Origin: Thermosphaera aggregans
GTDB lineage: Archaea; Thermoproteota; Thermoprotei_A; Sulfolobales; Desulfurococcaceae
NCBI RefSeq assembly: GCF_014962245.1
Contig: NZ_CP063144.1
Location: 362,582 to 426,581 of the forward strand
Direction: 5' to 3'
DNA length: 64,000 bases
In this document: positions 8,552 through 30,989 of the stretch, piece by piece
Numbering within the stretch: the first letter of the stretch is position 1
Layout of the letters: the number at the start of each line of letters is the position of its first letter
The notes under the pieces: model-generated
What the model was told of the DNA's origin: nothing
Databases searched by the model: none
Seen by the model: only the letters and a program-made list of their open reading frames with translations
Position numbers and translations under genes: made by a program

Positions 8552-9112
8552 TTGACAAACGTTTTCATAGTCATGATGTTCCTGCTTTCAATCCTACTAA
8601 TAGGCGTCGGGTATGGCTTATGGAGCGATACTTTGAAAGCCAACGTCTACATCCACATGTTCCCCGGGTATTTGGAGATAGGGTCCTGGAAGGTTTTCGC
8701 ACGCTACAGATGTGATGGATGCCTAGGCTATGATTTAACATTCTTGTCGCCAAGCAACGACACCTTACACATACTTATTGGAAGCAGGGTTGTTGAATAC
8801 TTGTGGATAGGGCTGGTAATAGAGAATAATAAGGAAGCCAGCCTCTACTTGGAGAACATAGAGGTCAAGATCAACGATACTTCAGGAGAATACGAGTTAA
8901 CCCCAATATCATACCTATATGAGCCTGTTAAAACAGGCATAGGCTACATGCCCTACTGGGGAGGGGTTAGGTGCTCTGACCTACCCGTGAACGGTTACCT
9001 AGCAGGGTATCCTGTGCTGGTTAAGCCAGGTTATAAAATGGTTGCATGGCTCTATGTAGAGCTCGGGCTGAGCAATGCTGAGATCACTGTGGAGATAGTT
9101 TCAGGTTATTAA
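8552..9112 (+). CDS. SipW-dependent-type secreted protein, TasA/AbpA-like paralogue 1
   Basis: This 186-residue protein starts with a hydrophobic segment ending 'GYGLWSDTLKANVY', the same pattern as the genes at 9945 and 10572. The TTG at 8552 is chosen because AAGGTG (8538-8543) precedes it by 8 nt, as in both paralogues; an in-frame GTG at 8525 would lengthen the N-terminus. The rest is predicted beta-rich, suiting a TasA/camelysin-like jelly-roll subunit. Location is inferred to be the cell surface after processing by the SipW-type peptidase at 11288. It is the most divergent of the three and has four Cys. Confidence 0.6.
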   Translation: MTNVFIVMMFLLSILLIGVGYGLWSDTLKANVYIHMFPGYLEIGSWKVFARYRCDGCLGYDLTFLSPSNDTLHILIGSRVVEYLWIGLVIENNKEASLYLENIEVKINDTSGEYELTPISYLYEPVKTGIGYMPYWGGVRCSDLPVNGYLAGYPVLVKPGYKMVAWLYVELGLSNAEITVEIVSGY

Positions 9113-9248
9113 AATACACTGTGATGGTTGATTAAACAATTTCTCATAAAAAATAACTAACTTCTTTTTTAAAATGTATTAGATATACGGAAGCTTTATA
9201 GGTAGATAAATGCATTTATTATTTAAATGATTAACGAAGGTTTAATGC

Positions 9249-9851
9249 TTGAGTAATAGAACGCGAATCGACATAGTTGAAAAAATCCTAGACTATATAG
9301 CAAGAGAGGAGAAAGCTCTTAAAACCCATATCCTCTATGCCTCAAACCTGAACAGTAGCAATCTTAACAAGTACCTGGAGTGGATGGTAAAGCTCGGTCT
9401 TGTAGAAAGGTTTGAAGATAACAGGAACATAGCGTACGCGATCACCCCTAAAGGGATAGAACTTCTTGAAAAGTTGAAAAACATCAACGATGTATTGAAC
9501 AGTAAGAGGGATTTGCTGAGCGACGAGCTCGTCTTCTACAGGGATGTTTTCAAGAAGACCATGGGCTCGCAGGAGTTCACGGTTTCCTACAGGTCGGTGA
9601 TAGGTAAAACCGGGTTAACATACATCCACCTCACAGTGGGATACGGGGGTGTTGAACACCTTCTAGTATCTTTAAACGAGGCAGTTGTCTCCCAGTATTT
9701 AATTCGAAATCTCGCGTACTCACTGCTTGTCTCAGACGACACGGGCATGCCCTTATTGATTGTTTTGAGAAACAAGAGAATACAAGATGTAGTTGAAAGG
9801 CTAGCCTCATCCAATTCTCCGGAGAGAAGGGTTAGGATAATAGTGGTTTAA
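9249..9851 (+). CDS. Winged-helix transcriptional regulator
   Basis: Residues about 5-80 form an archaeal winged-helix domain: 'DIVEKILDYIAREE', a recognition region with 'LNKYLEWMVKLGLVER' and a wing ending 'YAITPKGIELLEKL'. The remaining 110 residues are an unrecognised domain. TTG 9249 is the only sensible start because an ATG at 9245 is closed by a stop at once. The gene lies between TasA-like paralogues 1 and 2 and probably controls the locus; repeated GTTAATACATA motifs follow it, upstream of paralogue 2. Confidence 0.72.
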   Translation: MSNRTRIDIVEKILDYIAREEKALKTHILYASNLNSSNLNKYLEWMVKLGLVERFEDNRNIAYAITPKGIELLEKLKNINDVLNSKRDLLSDELVFYRDVFKKTMGSQEFTVSYRSVIGKTGLTYIHLTVGYGGVEHLLVSLNEAVVSQYLIRNLAYSLLVSDDTGMPLLIVLRNKRIQDVVERLASSNSPERRVRIIVV

Positions 9852-9852
9852 T

Positions 9853-9883
9853 ATGTATAGTTAATACATATGGTTAATACATA
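9853..9883. promoter_or_regulatory. Repeated motif GTTAATACATA, candidate operator for the fibre locus
   Basis: GTTAATACATA occurs at 9860-9870 and 9873-9883, 13 bp apart, and TATGTAT at 9853-9859 makes the first copy an inverted repeat with ATACATA. A TATA-like TTTTAAAA follows at about 9901-9908, ahead of the gene at 9945. A related ATGTATTAGATATAC lies upstream of the winged-helix gene at about 9174-9188. Confidence 0.45.
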
Positions 9884-9944
9884 ATACTTCTGCACTAGTG
9901 TTTTAAAAGCTGCTTACAATAACCCAAACCGAAAGGTGTAATGT

Positions 9945-10499
9945 ATGAAATCTATATCAACTATAATGGGCTTAACCTTCATAGGGTTAATGCTCCTAGC
10001 TCTAGGAGTGGCAACAGCTATGTGGATGGAGACATTGTGGATAAACACTTATATCGAGACTGGCGAGGTAAGAGTTGCCTGGACCGAGTGGACGTGTTCG
10101 GACCAGGGCCCAGACCCCCAGGCTGGCGAACCCTTCCATAACGAGGAAGGTAAGAATGTAGCGCAGTGCATTGTAACGCCGGAGATCTACGATGACGAGC
10201 AAAACGTTATCAAGGTTAACATCACACTGGTCAACGCATACCCCGGTTATGCACCGTTCATAACACTATACGCTGGTAATATTGGAACGATACCTGTTAA
10301 ACTATTGAACTATACTAATCTACAGTACGATGAGGAACCATTGACGGTTTACCTAGACATTCCAGAGGACACTCAGATACATCCAGGCGAATCCCTGCCT
10401 ATAGGGATACACATAATTGTGAACCAGGAAGCCGAAGAGCTAACAACATACTCGTTCGAACTGGAATTCACGTTCGCACAGTGGAACGAGGTTCCATAG
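9945..10499 (+). CDS. SipW-dependent-type secreted protein, TasA/AbpA-like paralogue 2
   Basis: This 184-residue protein has an N-terminal hydrophobic segment (about residues 8-24), then 'AMWMETLWINTYIETGEV', resembling the SipW-type cleavage region and first strand of TasA/camelysin and of the archaeal bundling pilin AbpA. The mature part is acidic and rich in Val/Thr/Ile as in beta-sandwich subunits. AAGGTG stands 6 nt before the ATG. It has its own TATA-like element and precedes a 10-bp hairpin and paralogue 3. Confidence 0.68.
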   Translation: MKSISTIMGLTFIGLMLLALGVATAMWMETLWINTYIETGEVRVAWTEWTCSDQGPDPQAGEPFHNEEGKNVAQCIVTPEIYDDEQNVIKVNITLVNAYPGYAPFITLYAGNIGTIPVKLLNYTNLQYDEEPLTVYLDIPEDTQIHPGESLPIGIHIIVNQEAEELTTYSFELEFTFAQWNEVP

Positions 10500-18291: not shown

Positions 18292-18513
18292 TTACTCAGT
18301 AGCTAAATCCCCTCTGTAGCTTATGGCCTCATTAGGGCAGATCTTCTGGCAGCCTCTGCAGAGCTCTACACAGTTACTAGGGTTAGCCACTAAGGGCTCC
18401 CCATCCCCCCGGACCTCGTAAACATCGTGAGGGCAAAAGTTGAAGCATGTGAGGCATCCGGAACACTTCTCGTAATCTATTACTGGATACCAGTTTTTCG
18501 CCACAGTATTCAC
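18292..18513 (-). CDS. Two-cluster [4Fe-4S] ferredoxin
   Basis: This 73-residue protein has 'CSGCLTCFNFCP' and 'CVELCRGCQKICP', giving the eight Cys of a 2[4Fe-4S] ferredoxin. It is a cytoplasmic electron carrier. It starts only 5 bp after the stop of the HdrA-like gene, so the two formed an operon before the island split the upstream gene. A promoter would now have to lie in the island's left end or in the truncated gene. Confidence 0.88.
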   Translation of the reverse strand: MNTVAKNWYPVIDYEKCSGCLTCFNFCPHDVYEVRGDGEPLVANPSNCVELCRGCQKICPNEAISYRGDLATE

Positions 18514-18518
18514 CAGGG

Positions 18519-18713
18519 TTAAAGAGCGTTTTCAATAGCCTTAATGGCTTCCTCGGTTGAAAGATTCCTTATTTCAACGCCGACGAACTTGGACTCGTCG
18601 AACCCTAACTCCTTAAACACCCAGCCGAACATTTTCTTCTGCATGACAGGGTCGCAGCCTGCTACAACAACTTTATCAATATACTCGTTCCTGCTTAGCA
18701 AGGCTCTCCAGAA
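18519..18713 (-). pseudogene. 3' half of an HdrA-like gene interrupted by the 18,714-24,486 island
   Basis: The frame reads 'FWRALLSRNEYIDKVVVAGC', then 'DPVMQKKMFGWVFKELG', to stop at 18519. This resembles the region of HdrA-type flavoproteins where 'VVVAACSP' occurs. Upstream in frame is a stop introduced at the island junction. The matching 5' half is at 24,487-24,641. A TTG at 18701 could start a 60-residue remnant. Exact family is uncertain; the split itself is well supported by frame arithmetic. Confidence 0.72.
18709..18713. repeat. Left copy of 5-bp direct repeat CAGAA flanking the island
   Basis: CAGAA here and at 24487-24491 bracket the island. Keeping one copy restores the HdrA-like frame exactly, as expected for a target-site duplication or a microhomology junction. 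Confidence 0.7.
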
Positions 18714-18744
18714 CTACCATATATAGAGGCAAAGAGTAAAGGCA

Positions 18745-19392
18745 TAGGTTATTTTGGTGGAAAAAGTTTTTACTAAAAGCTTCTATGTTCTAATGAAAGC
18801 ATCAAAATCTCTTTGGGATACGAGTGCTAATATTGTATTTTATATGGCAAAAATCTTAGAGAAACATCATGCTACGAGAGTTAGATAATATTGTAATTAA
18901 TCTTATGCCTAAAATTAAACTCTCAGATATTTAAAGATTGTAAAAAAGTTACGTATATAGTGGTTTCTTCATTAATTCCAGGACCATTGCCATATGTATT
19001 AATTGAGTTTATGTTATAATATATTATACAACAAATAAGTTATAGCATCAACGTAGGTGGTATACCGGAAATTATAGCTGGAGCTGGCTTAGGAGTAAAA
19101 GTTATAATGTTGTTGCAGATGAAATAATAACTTTCAATACTCTTACATTGGAGGAAGCTAATGAATTAGGTATCATTAATAAAATGTTTATCTTATTTAT
19201 CTTACAGAAATTCAGTAATCATAGAACGATCAACAGTTATAACAACCTAGGTTATAGCAAACATTATTGAATACCAGGTGTAAAAAATGGCTTTTGACAC
19301 TGTTAATTGCAGCAACGATGGTGTCAGCTATAGGTGGATTGCTGGATCTCTTAGTTTTAACCGGCTTTTAGCTTTAAATTTCTATATTCAAA
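18745..19392 (+). pseudogene. Heavily decayed glycosyltransferase remnants
   Basis: No intact frame exists in this stretch. At about 18745-18800 the DNA matches, base for base in many positions, the region 23570-23640 of the family 4 glycosyltransferase pseudogene ('YFGGKSF..FYVLM'). Near 19040-19090 a frame reads 'VGGIPEIIAGAGLGVKVI', like the end of a family 4 enzyme. Stops and frameshifts interrupt every frame. Apart from these scraps I see nothing. Confidence 0.45.
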
Positions 19393-19458
19393 GTGATATA
19401 TAAAAGCGAGGTGATTAATCTATTTAGCAATTATGCGAGAGGTTTAAATAGCTCTAGA

Positions 19459-20611
19459 ATGCGCAGAAGACCAAAGATATTACTTATTTCTTCACCTCCC
19501 ATCACACGTTTTTCTAGTGGGTACTACCTTAAAGGTGAATCACCTCTTATTATAAGATTGAGAGAGATTTGTGATGTTATTTCGTAGAGTTGGACTAAGC
19601 GTCGTGAACTACCAATTAGCTTTAGGCGCGTTTATCTCTTAGATGGTTTTCAAATATTTCTTGGTCTTATACATTGTATATTGAAAGGTCGTTTTAATGT
19701 AATAATTACGACAGGTATTCCTGTTTTAGAGTCTATACCAGCATTTCTCATGGCTAAGCTTTTACGTATTCCCGTGATAATTGAAGAAACGCACTGGTAC
19801 TGGCCTAGCACACTTATCTCTAAATTAATGTGGCCCATAAATAAATTGATGTGTTCTAAAACCGACTTAATAATTTGTCCAGGTAAACGAGCGTATGTCT
19901 ATTGGCGATCACTAGGTATACCTAGAGAAAAAATCAAAATTGTGCACTTCTATACAAGTATACTTCAACCGACTCCCGAAAATATAGAGTCTGCTAGACG
20001 TATTCGCGATAAATTCAGCGGTAAAGTTATCATATTGTACTTTGGTAGATTGATAAAGAAAAAAGGTGTGGATTATTTAATTAAAGCATTTGCAAAATTA
20101 GAGAGAAGTTGAAGACGTAGTCTTAATTATAGCTGGAGATGGACCTGAAAGACATAATTTAGAAAACCTATGTAAAGAATTGAAAGTGAAAAACGTTGTA
20201 TTTATCGGTGCCGTGTCCGAAGATGTTAAACCAGGCTATTTCTTGGCGGCAGATATTTATGTTTATCCTTCAATTACACTAGAACTACCCGAGGAGTGGC
20301 CTTTAGGCGTAGTTGAAGCTATGTCAGTTGGAAAACCCGTTATTGTTACCACAGCTGTTGGTTCTGCTCCCGACGTAGTTCAACATGGAGTTAATGGTTA
20401 TATCATTCCAGAAAAAGACGTAGATGCTTCATATAATGCCCTGAAAAGCTTAGTCTTGGACAAGGATTTGAGAGAAAAGATGGGACTAGCTTCTAAGAAA
20501 ATCGTAGAAAACGCTTACACGTATGAACATGCCGTTAAGGGTTTAGCTGAAGCAATAATAATAGCTCTCCGTAATAAAATAAAAGGTAAAACAAAAGATT
20601 ACATGGGTTAG
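19459..20611 (+). pseudogene. Family 4 glycosyltransferase, broken by a nonsense codon and a frameshift
   Basis: Starting at ATG 19459 ('KILLISSPPITRFSSGYY') the frame meets an in-frame TAG at 19585-19587, continues in the same frame with 'FNVIITTGIPVLESIPAFLM' and 'ILYFGRLIKKKGVDYLIKAF', and shifts near 20100-20108 in a GAGAGA tract. The C-terminal part reads 'VLIIAGDGPERHNL' and 'YVYPSITLELPEEWPLGVVE', with the ExxxxxxxE donor-site region of GT4. Both GT-B domains are recognisable, so decay is recent. It would have transferred a sugar to a lipid-linked glycan or polysaccharide. Confidence 0.75.
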
Positions 20612-20639
20612 TTATTTAGATGGTTGGGACTGTGGAAAA

Positions 20640-21555
20640 CATATGCGTGGGTGTTATATTATAGCAAAGAACGCATAAAAGACGATAGGTTATACCTTAT
20701 GCTCTTTACTTAAACAAACATGGAAACCCACGAAATAATTGTCGATGTACCTTCACTTAAAGATACAATAATCGATGCGATCAAATTATTCATGAATTCT
20801 AATAGCGGTAATTTAATAAGAATAGTAGTTCAAGATATAGAGGGACTTCTCAAAACATAAGTCATTATGCCACAGCCGGAAACATCGGGATTAGAGCTTC
20901 TATAGGCAATATCATTGTATTTGATATCATTACATTTATTGACACAGATGCTCGTGTATATTCACAATTTATAGAAAACATATGCAGCGTATTCATAACA
21001 CAGAAAGATGTAATGATTCAACAATTTCTTATTTTGGGAACAAATGGCTTAGCAAACTATTATTGCGTAGAAAATCGACTATCAGAAAAATAGACTTCTT
21101 CAGCCTAACGACTTAATTTACCTGAGTAGGCCGAAATATACTACTGCTATAATGGCAATAAGACGTGAATTGCTGTCTATCGTAGGACTGTTTGGTCTTT
21201 TTTGATATTGGCAGCGAAGATCGAGATTTTCTTCTACGTGTGGAAAAACATCGCATACAAATAGTTTATAACAAGAAAGCCGTAGTATATCATCAATCAC
21301 GGCCTTTTACATTAAAAGATTATCTGGAAAATGGGCGCTTCAAGGGCTCGTGCATTTATTAAATACGGAAGAGCAATGTTAAAAGATACTATCAGCGTAT
21401 TATTTCATATACTTTGCATTGTATTCTTTTTCGTGTTTTTGCTAACAAGAAAGCCATTATTAGGTTTAATACTATTAGCCTCATCATTGTTACTTAGATT
21501 TAAAAATACGATCAAAAGTACGTTATCCGAAAATTGGATGGCAAGTAGTATCTAA
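20640..21555 (+). pseudogene. Family 2 glycosyltransferase with C-terminal membrane segment, decayed
   Basis: Pieces of one GT2 gene lie in different frames: 'AGNIGIRASIGNIIVF' followed by 'FIDTDARV' (nucleotide-sugar and metal site), 'YTTAIMAIRREL', 'FDIGSEDRDFLLRVEKH' (the C-terminal ED acceptor site), and a final part from 21331 with a membrane stretch ('ISVLFHILCIVFFFVFLL'). Stops and frameshifts separate them. The 74-codon frame at 21331-21555 is the gene's tail, not a separate gene. Confidence 0.65.
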
Positions 21556-21733
21556 ATGTTAGTATTACAAAATTTATAATTTATATGTATGTAGCTTACT
21601 TTGCATTTATGGCTGAACTATTTAGGCATTTCATCGCATTAATAAGTTAGCACTGAGATTATTTAACTATATGGCGCGAAGTAAAAACTTGCGGTGATAA
21701 GATATCCTGTCTGAGAAAGAACGAATAAAAATT

Positions 21734-22864
21734 ATGTTCATCCCATTCACAGAAGACAAAACAAGTGAACGAGTTCCTTCACTAATTAGAATTTTGTCAA
21801 AATATTTTGACTTAGTGGGATTGAAGCCCCTATGTAGACGTCGTTCAATCTATTATAAGAATAGAATTGTATATGGAATTATATGGATTCTTGAATGGAT
21901 TACAGAGAGAATTATTATGATCTTAAACGGAATTAAGATGGGTTCACGAAACTTCATAACACTTATATTTTGTGAAGAACCGGAATATGCATTGGTTGGA
22001 TTTATACTTTCCAAGATTTTAAGAGTACCTTTTATTTACGATAGCCATGGAAACAAATACCTACAGTGTATAAGACTTAGAAATCCCCTCTATTACAGAC
22101 TCTACATAACGTTCTTAGACATATTCTTGGCGAAAAAGTGTTCGGTCTTACTGGTTGTTTCGGAATTTGACAGACGATGTTACATTAACCAAGGAGTTCC
22201 TCCTGGGAAAATATATGTAATTCCAAGCTTTATAGATCTCGAAAAAGTAAAAAGAGCTATAATGAATCCCTCCACGAACATACCTATTCCCAAGGGTAAA
22301 AAGACTCTACTTTTCTTTGGTAATTACAACTACGAGCCAAACGTTGAAGCTCTACGATTTATAAACAATGAATTAGCACCAGCGATTGATAACATAGAAA
22401 ACGTAGAAATATATATATGTGGCCGTAGCCCAGTTCCTATCGAGCAATTAGTTGGACCTCTCCACAGAAAAGTAAAATATCTAGGGTTTGTTCCAGACAT
22501 ATACGAAGTTTTAAATACTGTTGACGCATTCATATGTCCCATCTGGACAGGTGTTGGAATAATTGTAAAGGTGTTAGATGCTATGGCTGTTGGTAAACCT
22601 ATTGTCGGTACTAAATTTCTGAGAGAGGGCATACCTGAACTTAACGAGAATAATGCCTTACTGGCTAGAAATAAACAAGAATTCATCTATTTAGTCAGAC
22701 ACTTACTCGAACATTACGACGAGTATAAACACATGGGTCAAGTATTACAAAACATTATAGCTACTAGATACAGTCGAGATGTTATTGAGAAAAAATTGTA
22801 TTTTATAATATTGCATGTTATAAGAGATCGTCTCTTGAAAACTAAGAAGTTTAGAAAACTTTGA
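21734..22864 (+). CDS. Family 4 glycosyltransferase
   Basis: This 376-residue GT-B enzyme is the only apparently intact gene of the island. The N-terminal domain includes 'RVPFIYDSHGNKYLQCIRL'; the C-terminal donor domain begins 'KTLLFFGNYNYEPNVEALRF' and contains 'VKYLGFVPDIYEVLNTVDAF' and 'GVGIIVKVLDAMAVGKPIVG', with the family's donor-site Lys/Ala region. The expected role is sugar transfer in S-layer glycosylation or exopolysaccharide synthesis. No good ribosome-binding site precedes the ATG, and the codon use is far more A/T-rich than outside the island, so the gene may be silent. Confidence 0.82.
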   Translation: MFIPFTEDKTSERVPSLIRILSKYFDLVGLKPLCRRRSIYYKNRIVYGIIWILEWITERIIMILNGIKMGSRNFITLIFCEEPEYALVGFILSKILRVPFIYDSHGNKYLQCIRLRNPLYYRLYITFLDIFLAKKCSVLLVVSEFDRRCYINQGVPPGKIYVIPSFIDLEKVKRAIMNPSTNIPIPKGKKTLLFFGNYNYEPNVEALRFINNELAPAIDNIENVEIYICGRSPVPIEQLVGPLHRKVKYLGFVPDIYEVLNTVDAFICPIWTGVGIIVKVLDAMAVGKPIVGTKFLREGIPELNENNALLARNKQEFIYLVRHLLEHYDEYKHMGQVLQNIIATRYSRDVIEKKLYFIILHVIRDRLLKTKKFRKL

Positions 22865-22896
22865 CGTATTAACAATTTCATGTATGGCGTACAAAT

Positions 22897-23687
22897 ATGA
22901 AAATGGCAGTATTCTCAGAACTATTCTATCCTCACGGTGGAGGTGCTGAATTAGCAACGTGGTTGTATTTAAAGCTACTCAGTGAGGAAGAAGGAATTAA
23001 GATTAAAGTTGTAACTCGTCAATTCCCCGGCGAACCATCTACGGAATTAGTGAACAAGAATCTAACGATATTTAGAATTCCAATGAAGATAGCGCTCGGT
23101 AGCAGGTACGATACACTCGTTAATATGGGAATTCTATTGAAAGACTTTAATCAAAAACTGATTAAAGAAAGCGATGTAGTTTATATTCCAGGCTGTTGGT
23201 ATAGTGCAATACCGATTGCAAAAATGCATAAAAACCAGTTGTTGCCCATATACATAATTACTCCATTGCATGCTCTACATCCTTAATGTATGATTTTGCC
23301 AGAGATAGAGTAGGACCTGCAACACTACGATCTTTCATACTCCATGAAATACTTGAAAGGAGACGAAAAATAGTCTCCGTCGTAACTTCTTCTTTGATGA
23401 ACGAAGTATTTGGGAAGTACTATAATAAACTAGGCATAATGGCGGATGCCCTAATTTTTGTTAGTAGAGCTCAAATGAACCTAATACATTCATTAATTCC
23501 ATACATTAAAGATAAAAGCTACTTGATATATAATCCTATTCCAAATTACTCACTTATTAAAGCTGAGAAGAAGGGTGTAAGCTACTTTGGAGGAAAGAGT
23601 TTCGCTAAGGGATTTTATGTTTTAATGAGAACAATAGAGCAACTCACACGTCTTGCTGGGGTTTGGAGGCGCATGTACTCGGTGTAG
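22897..23687 (+). pseudogene. Family 4 glycosyltransferase, frameshifted and 3'-truncated
   Basis: The N-terminal part 'FSELFYPHGGGAELATWLYL' is typical of GT4. The frame ends at TAA 23284-23286; inserting one T there continues as 'MYDFARDRVGPATL' and 'ADALIFVSRAQMNLIHSLIP', as expected for the inter-domain region. The protein then stops shortly after 'YFGGKSFAKGFYVLM', losing nearly all of the donor-binding domain. The loss coincides with the junction to the opposite-strand fragments after 23690. It is homologous to the left-end remnant at 18745. Confidence 0.72.
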
Positions 23688-23716
23688 ACGTGTTAACTCT
23701 AGCCGTGTTGTGCTGG

Positions 23717-24067
23717 TTAGAGTGGTAGGGTTGCTCCAATGCCAAGTTTGACTGCTTTTTCATATGCTAATTTGGTGACTACGACGTCGTGTGATGCTAT
23801 TTCTAGTAAGACTGCTGCTTTCTTTGGTTTGCTCTTCAAGTACTCTATTCTCCTGGTGCATATGTCTCCCATGTCTAGTTCTACTTTATCAGGGTAGTTT
23901 TTGAAGTATGGGCCTTTTGCCCTGGTTGCTAGGTATTGTTGTTTATCGTCTACAACGAAGACGTCAGCGGTGTTTACTACTTCTTCTTTGACGACTGCAT
24001 CATAGTCTACTGCTATGACTAGAAAGTCTTCTTTCAAGTCGCCGAGGCCTATAAACCTCCTTGGCAC
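23717..24067 (-). pseudogene. C-terminal fragment of an ornithine cyclodeaminase/mu-crystallin-family gene
   Basis: The frame reads 'VNTADVFVVDDKQQYLATRA', an ELDMGD segment and 'VVTKLAYEKAVKLGIGATLP' to the stop, like the last third of ornithine cyclodeaminase/alanine dehydrogenase proteins. The N-terminal two thirds, with the substrate Lys and NAD-binding loop, are missing; upstream in frame is a TAG at the junction with the phosphohexomutase fragment. A GTG at 24067 could start a 116-residue product, but it would be inactive. Confidence 0.6.
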
Positions 24068-24486
24068 CTCCGACAGCTAGTAGTGGCGCTGTTCTATCAC
24101 CCCATTGAAATCTACCTTCATTATCTATAATCATTGCTCTATCGGCATCGCCATCATGTGCTACTCCAAAATCGCATCCATATAGTTTTACTAATTTAAT
24201 TGTTTCTACTAGGTTTTCTGGTATTGGCTCTGGTAGTCTAGCTGGGTGTGGATCTAGGTTTCCATTTACAACAACTGGTTTAACACCTAGTTTCTTGAGT
24301 AGAAGGGTTGTTGTTAGTGAACCTACATTGTTTCCAGGGTCTACTAGTACTTTGAAGTCTCTTCTAGCTATTTTATCAACATCTACTTTTTCTAATACAC
24401 CATTTACATATATTTCTATTGCATCTGGAAATCTCTCAATTCTATCAGGTGCACTCTTCCAGTTTACAAATCTATATCTTTCACTT
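24062..24486 (-). pseudogene. Internal fragment of phosphomannomutase/phosphoglucosamine mutase
   Basis: An open frame runs from the island's right end: 'NWKSAPDRIERFPDAIEIYV', 'VLVDPGNNVGSLTTTLLLKK', 'FGVAHDGDADRAMIIDNEG' (metal-binding loop DGDADR) and 'WGDRTAPLLA'. Both ends are missing: the N-terminal part with the phosphoserine loop is cut at the island boundary and the C-terminal half is replaced by the cyclodeaminase fragment. Complete enzymes isomerise hexose-6-phosphate to hexose-1-phosphate for NDP-sugar synthesis. Confidence 0.72.
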
Positions 24487-24491
24487 CAGAA
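24487..24491. repeat. Right copy of 5-bp direct repeat CAGAA flanking the island
   Basis: This matches the copy at 18709-18713. On the - strand it supplies TTCTG, completing the codons TTC TGG that join the two halves of the HdrA-like gene. Confidence 0.7.
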
Positions 24492-24641
24492 GTTATCACC
24501 ATCGGTTGCGCACAGCTGGGGGTGAATGAGAGCGAAGTCAACCTTCCTATTTCTTCGGAAGTAGTTCACTACTTCAAACACGTTCATCTTCTGAAATGAG
24601 GGGCAGGTGCCCTGGCATACGCACATTATCAACTCTTTCAT
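24487..24641 (-). pseudogene. 5' half of the HdrA-like gene interrupted by the island
   Basis: From ATG 24641 the frame reads 'MKELIMCVCQGTCPSFQKMN', then 'KVDFALIHPQLCATDGDNF', and meets TGA at the island boundary. Joined to 18,708-18,519 it gives 345 nt, a 114-residue protein through 'DNFWRALLSRNEY'. It resembles the N-terminal region of HdrA-type subunits, with a Cys-rich opening and the 'LC..DG' segment. The native role was probably electron transfer with the adjacent ferredoxin. Confidence 0.72.
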
Positions 24642-30813: not shown

Positions 30814-30921
30814 TGCCGCCGCCGGGATTTGAACCCGGGTTTCCCGCACCCTTCTCGAACGGACCTAGGGTGTCACGGGCTCGAGAGGCCCGCATACTTG
30901 ACCGGGCTATACTACGGCGGC
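30814..30921 (-). tRNA. tRNA-Glu(CUC) with an intron in the variable loop
   Basis: GCCGCCG (from 30921) pairs with CGGCGGC, with discriminator A at 30814. The anticodon stem CGGGC/GCCCG encloses loop CTCTCGA, anticodon CTC. The gene has 33 extra nucleotides between positions 45 and 46; without them the variable loop is a normal TGAC and the T arm CCGGG-TTCAAAT-CCCGG follows. The mature tRNA is 75 nt. Confidence 0.9.
30841..30873 (-). other. Non-canonical tRNA-Glu intron (33 nt, position 45/46)
   Basis: A canonical bulge-helix-bulge is visible: exon CCCG pairs with intron CGGG (4-bp central helix), with bulges TGA and AAA and inner helix CACCCT/AGGGTG. Cuts after the second base of each bulge excise exactly 33 nt. 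Introns outside position 37/38 are characteristic of Crenarchaeota with heteromeric splicing endonucleases. Confidence 0.88.
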
Positions 30922-30989
30922 ACCTAGGTATTCGTTTAATAGTTAATGGGGGTTTAAAACCTTGCTTAACCTTGTCGGAAGAGGACTGC

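What the first reader, a model, noticed from the sequence alone, without database searches (positions are those of the whole stretch)
18519..24641. A 5.8-kb glycan-gene graveyard inserted inside an HdrA-like gene, with a 5-bp direct repeat at the junctions
Seen: the 5' half of a gene (24641 down to 24487) and its 3' half (18713 down to 18519) lie on the same strand on either side of an A+T-rich block. CAGAA occurs at both junctions. Deleting 18714-24486 plus one CAGAA copy leaves 345 nt, a clean 114-codon frame through 'DNFWRALLSRNEY' with the ferredoxin gene 5 bp after its stop. Inference: the block arrived as one insertion event with target-site duplication, or by microhomology. It encodes no transposase, has no terminal inverted repeats, and nearly all its genes are already broken.
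Basis: seen in the sequence. Interest (0 to 1): 0.85.

Follow-up and report, generated by a model that had tools for sequence, protein, structure and literature searches.

The report
Foreign DNA patchwork splitting an archaeal gene
In the heat-loving archaeon Thermosphaera sp. 3507, a 5.8-kb patchwork of at least three unrelated foreign or glycan-gene fragments was recently pasted into a small redox gene through a seven-letter sequence match, which suggests that these archaea can capture foreign DNA with almost no sequence homology and no mobile element.

Summary
Six relatives, including the closest one (G001), carry the uninterrupted 114-codon gene next to the ferredoxin. In G001 the empty site differs from the window by exactly the block plus one CAGAA copy. 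The interpretation needs three changes. (1) The block is a mosaic: a glycosyltransferase cluster (A), the 3' end of an ornithine-cyclodeaminase/alanine-dehydrogenase-type gene (B, 89% to G035) and an internal piece of glmM (C, 85% to G035). G035 (MAG UBA285) is in another genus, and there B and C lie on different contigs. C groups with G035 (support 100/98), away from the host's own intact glmM. (2) CAGAA is probably not a transposase target duplication. The nearest donor relatives already carry the same letters at both breakpoints (GlmM CCAGAAG; glycosyltransferase TCCAGA, at a conserved proline; chance about 2e-4 and 1e-3). There are no terminal inverted repeats, no transposase, and no plasmid or phage match. 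(3) The insertion looks young: target halves and C have no indels, while the leftmost glycosyltransferase has 16 in 569 nt. Much of the decay therefore came before arrival. Best reading: microhomology-mediated illegitimate integration of foreign DNA. Whether the donor was linear, circular or copied by template switching is undecided.

The parts
18292..18513 (-). intact 4Fe-4S ferredoxin gene downstream of the split gene
   Evidence: orthologues next to the uninterrupted gene in G001, G002, G027, G048, G054, G038
18519..18713 (-). 3' part of the split 114-codon gene
   Evidence: tblastn across the junction in six relatives; only halves in G000
18707..18713 (+). left junction TCCAGAA, shared by target and glycosyltransferase donor
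   Evidence: resident paralogue of the donor gene reads TCCAGA at the same codons; 6-nt run, null frequency 0.0013; proline codon conserved in homologues
18714..19275 (+). segment A: 3' part of a GT4-type glycosyltransferase, heavily decayed (16 indels versus the resident paralogue)
19282..19353 (+). segment A: trace of the end of a membrane-protein gene as in the resident cluster
   Evidence: tblastx match to L064 12202-12273
19430..20611 (+). segment A: GT4 glycosyltransferase, one frameshift near 20110
   Evidence: 77% DNA identity to G000:C1:197406-198496; Pfam Glycos_transf_1
20700..21555 (+). segment A: remnant of a family-2-type glycosyltransferase, many stops and frameshifts
   Evidence: weak Pfam match; three-frame translation
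21734..22864 (+). segment A: open 376-codon glycosyltransferase, the only intact gene in the block
   Evidence: Pfam Glyco_trans_1_4 E 3.8e-20; no relative at E<=1e-25 in 197 genomes of the order
22897..23645 (+). segment A: GT4 glycosyltransferase, frameshifted, cut off at about residue 252
   Evidence: 59-63% aa to the resident paralogue; 65% DNA
23647..24075 (-). segment B: 3' end of an ornithine cyclodeaminase/alanine dehydrogenase-type gene (stop at 23717-23719)
   Evidence: 89% DNA to G035:C2:28301-28678 over 23699-24075; gene absent from G001 and G002
24075..24076 (.). B/C fusion point, about 1 bp of overlap
   Evidence: OCD and GlmM of G035 each match one side only
24076..24486 (-). 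segment C: internal codons ~133-267 of glmM (phosphoglucosamine mutase)
   Evidence: 85% DNA to G035:C13:110544-110946; tree with G035 100/98, away from own GlmM; NCBIfam TIGR03990 on the G035 gene
24487..24492 (+). right junction CAGAAG, shared by target and glmM donor
   Evidence: G035 glmM reads CCAGAAG there, target TCCAGAAG; 7-nt run, null frequency 1.9e-4
24487..24641 (-). 5' part of the split gene

Best explanation
The block is foreign or mosaic chromosomal DNA, not a mobile element. A fragment carrying a piece of a glycan-synthesis cluster (A), the tail of an OCD/alanine-dehydrogenase-type gene (B) and an internal piece of glmM (C) was inserted into a small gene of unknown redox role. 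Shown: an empty site in relatives, foreign origin of B and C, absence of B-C adjacency in the nearest donor relative, and matching 6-7-nt sequences at both outer junctions in the nearest donor relatives. Inferred: the target's TCCAGAAG paired with the same letters in donor DNA at both ends (microhomology-mediated end joining at a staggered break, or copying out and back), so target CAGAA appears twice with no target base lost. Also inferred: the three source pieces were joined end to end in the donor or during repair, and the event is recent, because target halves and C show no indels.
For: Intact gene in six relatives and exact empty site in G001. Two separate G035 contigs match the two sides of 24075. 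C clusters with G035 (100/98) while G000 keeps its own glmM. OCD absent from both other Thermosphaera genomes. Microhomology: GlmM CCAGAAG and GT1 TCCAGA in register with target TCCAGAAG, null frequencies 1.9e-4 and 1.3e-3; the proline codon at the left breakpoint is conserved in the GT homologues. No terminal inverted repeats (best match within shuffles), no plasmid or phage DNA match, no viral-contig match. Young: no indels in target halves, and own-lineage changes still mostly at third positions, 3/1/15. Ku absent in 13 genomes. Microhomology end joining is documented in the crenarchaeon Saccharolobus islandicus (PMC12019639).
Against: The real donor sequences are not known; donor letters at the junctions are read from relatives roughly 65-86% identical. 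Two independent microhomologies to the same target heptamer is an extra coincidence for a linear donor. At the right junction the block has TCAGAAG where both target and donor relative have CCAGAAG, so one later change must be assumed. B/C shows only about 1 bp of overlap and A/B has an unexplained stretch of ~45 bp.
Confidence: 0.68

Rival explanations
1. Transposition: a composite or transposase-less element inserted with a 5-bp target-site duplication.
For: 5-bp direct repeat CAGAA flanks the block with no target loss.
Against: No terminal inverted repeats above shuffles; no transposase found; ends lie inside two ordinary genes (glmM codon ~133, GT residue ~218); the repeat letters are already present in donor relatives at both ends; no second copy of the unit in G000.
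Confidence: 0.1
2. A circle carrying one TCCAGAAG site integrated by a single crossover at that site, either by very short homology or by an unknown site-specific recombinase.
For: Both ends carry the same 6-7-mer in direct orientation and the target loses nothing, exactly as single-crossover integration predicts.
Against: No integrase in the block, no plasmid-like genes, no match to plasmids or phages; the core is a coding heptamer in three unrelated genes, not a tRNA end; the circle itself would have to be a chimaera.
Confidence: 0.14
3. A larger genomic island arrived long ago and shrank by internal deletions, leaving A, B and C side by side.
For: A has heavily decayed members; B and C are sharply fused fragments.
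Against: Target halves and C have no indels and own-lineage change in the target still looks constrained, so there was little time for decay in place; both outer ends are intact at the target.
Confidence: 0.12
4. Assembly or culture artefact.
For: Strain was purified from an enrichment culture (PMC7729421); part of the block resembles another genus.
Against: Isolate Illumina data assembled into one contig from 1.16 million read pairs of 2 x 150 bp (PMC7729421), an estimated coverage above 100x; B and C are only 85-89% like the nearest known genome; four chimaeric joints would all have to be unbranched in the assembly. Reads were not examined here.
Confidence: 0.04

Closest known systems
Double illegitimate recombination and homology-facilitated illegitimate recombination (naturally transformable bacteria such as Acinetobacter baylyi; described from own knowledge)
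   Same: foreign DNA joined to the chromosome at a few matching bases, without a mobile element
   Different: here an archaeon; both outer joints use the same target heptamer with no target loss; the insert is a chimaera of at least three sources; no long anchoring homology was found
Microhomology-mediated end joining through the replicative primase in Saccharolobus islandicus (PMC12019639)
   Same: crenarchaeal, Ku-independent joining through a few paired bases
   Different: the published outcome is mainly 1-2-bp indels; capture of kilobase foreign DNA was not found in the passages read
Ced DNA-import system of Crenarchaeota (PMC9905601)
   Same: a possible route by which chromosomal DNA of a neighbour enters; studied in Aeropyrum pernix, placed there in Desulfurococcales
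   Different: imported DNA is thought to be used for homologous repair; presence of Ced in this strain was not tested here
Fragment capture at repaired breaks in eukaryotes (filler DNA; own knowledge)
   Same: several unlinked fragments joined and trapped at one site
   Different: here prokaryotic, without Ku, kilobase size and interspecies source

Membership tests
Transposon insertion | terminal inverted repeats | tested here: not met
   best 20-nt inverted match 12-13, shuffles mean 11.2, max 16
Transposon insertion | transposase gene or known element relative | tested here: not met
   larger block ORFs match only glycosyltransferases or nothing; no plasmid/phage match
Transposon insertion | flanking repeat comes from the target alone, not from the donor | tested here: not met
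   donor relatives carry CCAGAAG and TCCAGA at the ends; true donor unknown
Integrase-driven integrative element | integrase gene and tRNA or long att site | tested here: not met
   no tRNA at the site; no integrase among the ORFs scanned; shared core only 6-7 nt
Microhomology-mediated illegitimate integration | short identity between donor and target at each outer joint | tested here: met
   7 and 6 nt, null frequencies 1.9e-4 and 1.3e-3, read from relatives of the donor
Microhomology-mediated illegitimate integration | foreign or unlinked donor DNA | tested here: met
   B and C nearest to G035; A only distantly like the resident cluster
Homology-facilitated illegitimate recombination | one long homologous anchor next to the insertion | tested here: not met
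   flanks align to G001 right up to the block, with no foreign stretch outside it seen
Ku/LigD non-homologous end joining | Ku protein | tested here: not met
   PF02735 absent from G000 and 12 relatives; control found in Bacillus subtilis
Ced-mediated DNA import | CedA/CedA1/CedB genes in the genome | not tested
   no search made
HdrA (target gene) | full-length HdrA above NCBIfam cut-off | tested here: not met
   114 aa; 17 bits against cut-offs of 1100-1400; no Pfam hit

The most novel reading that the evidence does not exclude
The block is a single multi-fragment capture: during repair of a break, a hyperthermophilic archaeon joined at least three unlinked pieces of foreign DNA and sealed them into its chromosome through a 7-nt pairing, an archaeal counterpart of eukaryotic filler-DNA insertion and a route of interspecies gene transfer that needs neither homology nor a mobile element.
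Probability: 0.3. Interest if true: 0.68.

Novelty: new variant of a known kind. Interest (0 to 1): 0.5.

Why it matters
Many strain-specific islands in archaeal genomes have no known way of entry. A young event with an empty site in sister species, traceable foreign pieces and readable joints is direct evidence that kilobase foreign DNA can enter by microhomology alone. It turns primase-type end joining, so far seen as small indels, into a testable route of horizontal gene transfer in archaea. It also warns that a short direct repeat at an island is not proof of transposition.

Tried and rejected
A genome-contig scan with the intact GT and viral scans with the GT, the OCD piece and the B/C junction 20-mer found nothing. 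Plasmid and phage DNA searches were empty. I considered that the block is circularly permuted relative to the resident glycan cluster, because both ends of A carry a YFGGKSF glycosyltransferase piece. Rejected: the two pieces differ clearly when read side by side (PELPYIEAKSKGIGYFGGKSF versus PNYSLIKAEKKGVSYFGGKSF) and are better read as two paralogues. A first tree of C used a wrong frame and was redone. Literature searches for short-homology recombination and double illegitimate recombination in archaea gave nothing directly comparable.

Full report
WHERE IT IS. The window is bases 362582-426581 of a 1,305,106-bp genome. That is the size published for Thermosphaera sp. strain 3507 from a Chilean hot spring, an isolate assembled from Illumina reads into one contig (PMC7729421). 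The identity of the genome is inferred from its exact size.

The two halves (24641-24487 and 18713-18519) join, with one CAGAA removed, into 345 nt: 114 codons plus stop, ferredoxin 5 bp further on. The joined protein matches uninterrupted genes in six relatives across the junction: 88% identity in G001, 69-83% in the others. In G001, the closest genome, DNA identity runs from 18307 to 18713 and resumes at 24487, with only the five bases CAGAA used twice. This is an empty site. G000 has no other copy of the gene, so the gene is lost in this strain. The gene is patchy in the order: 16 of 197 sampled genomes match, counting G000's halves and a decayed copy in G063. The name HdrA-like rests on a weak match to the HdrA N-terminal region (17 bits, cut-off above 1100).

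THE BLOCK IS A PATCHWORK. Segment A (18714 to about 23646, 34% GC) is a piece of a glycan cluster. It is related to the resident cluster at about 190-202 kb of the same genome in gene content and partly in order, but only 65-80% identical in DNA. Segment B (about 23647-24075) is the 3' end of an ornithine cyclodeaminase/alanine dehydrogenase-type gene on the minus strand. Segment C (24076-24486) is codons ~133-267 of glmM on the minus strand. B and C are 89% and 85% identical to G035, a MAG of another genus in the same family (UBA285). There they lie at internal positions of two contigs, so the B/C fusion at 24075 does not exist in G035. The OCD gene is missing from both other Thermosphaera genomes. 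C groups with G035 at 100/98 support inside that genus, while the host's own intact glmM groups with Thermosphaera.

B AND C MAY HAVE DIFFERENT HISTORIES. Differences between C and G035 fall 14/7/46 on the three codon positions, i.e. 34% at third positions, as expected under selection. Those in B fall 15/14/10, about 11% overall and without constraint; the G035 OCD copy is itself frameshifted. The two segments therefore probably did not diverge from G035 at the same time. This is an inference from short segments.

THE DIRECT REPEAT IS BETTER READ AS MICROHOMOLOGY. The target reads TCCAGAAG. At the right joint G035 glmM, in register, continues CCAGAAG (Phe-Trp codons). At the left joint the resident paralogue of the broken glycosyltransferase reads TCCAGA, and the proline encoded by CCA is conserved in the homologues examined. 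Against all other positions of the window, a run at least as long occurs with frequency 1.9e-4 (right) and 1.3e-3 (left). A transposase duplication would not need any donor match. The ends show no inverted repeat above shuffles. No transposase, integrase or viral/plasmid relative was found. The true donor was not found, so its letters at the joints are inferred from relatives. The inner B/C joint has only about 1 bp overlap, and A/B contains about 45 unexplained bases.

IT IS YOUNG, AND PART OF IT ARRIVED DEAD. Target halves (345 nt) have no indels relative to G001, and C (411 nt) none relative to G035. Own-lineage changes in the target still fall mainly at third positions (3/1/15 with G002 as outgroup). 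In contrast the leftmost glycosyltransferase piece carries 16 indels in 569 nt, and the family-2-type remnant is also badly decayed. These two decayed mostly before the insertion; the comparison is with a resident paralogue that is itself diverged, so the count is approximate. One glycosyltransferase (21734-22864) is still open.

MECHANISM. Shown: empty site, foreign mosaic, matching letters at both outer joints in donor relatives. Inferred: repair of a break or stalled fork in the target, using 6-7 bases of pairing at both sides. Ku is absent. In Saccharolobus islandicus the replicative primase supports microhomology-mediated end joining (PMC12019639), so a machinery of this kind is known in Crenarchaeota. 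Import of neighbour DNA by Ced is possible (PMC9905601) but was not tested here. A circular donor with one TCCAGAAG site explains the lack of target loss equally well and cannot be excluded.

NOVELTY. Microhomology-mediated illegitimate integration is known from bacteria (own knowledge). I found no paper in the held library describing it for Crenarchaeota (a limited search). The chimaeric insert and the shared heptamer make this a variant rather than a plain example. It is one genomic event, not a system, hence an interest score near the middle.

Noticed in passing
L064 12362-13516 (G000:C1:197361-198515): The resident copy of the GT4 gene in the host's own glycan cluster is also frameshifted (near L064 13130), at a different place from the copy in the block.
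   Followed up: partly
L064 13568-13654: The resident cluster seems to keep only the first ~90 bp of the glycosyltransferase that is intact in the block at 21734-22864, suggesting a deletion there.
   Followed up: partly
L065 7687-8679 (G035:C2): The OCD/alanine-dehydrogenase-type gene of G035 (UBA285) is itself frameshifted, so both the block copy and its nearest relative are defective.
   Followed up: partly
L145 (G063:C34:13988-14263): G063 carries what looks like a decayed copy of the target gene (37% aa, six stops), so this gene may have been lost more than once in the family.
   Followed up: no
window 24485-24492: The right joint reads TTCAGAAG where target and donor relative both read CCAGAAG; the change makes TGA and ends the 5' half exactly at the joint.
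   Followed up: partly
window 23646-23700: About 45 bp between the glycosyltransferase and the OCD fragment match neither side and include an inverted repeat (ACACGTCT ... AGACGTGT).
   Followed up: no
window 9001-10000: A second, smaller GC dip (0.39) in the window.
   Followed up: no
window 30814-30922: ARAGORN and Rfam give different limits for the tRNA-Glu gene (30841 versus 30814), possibly an intron or a boundary error.
   Followed up: no
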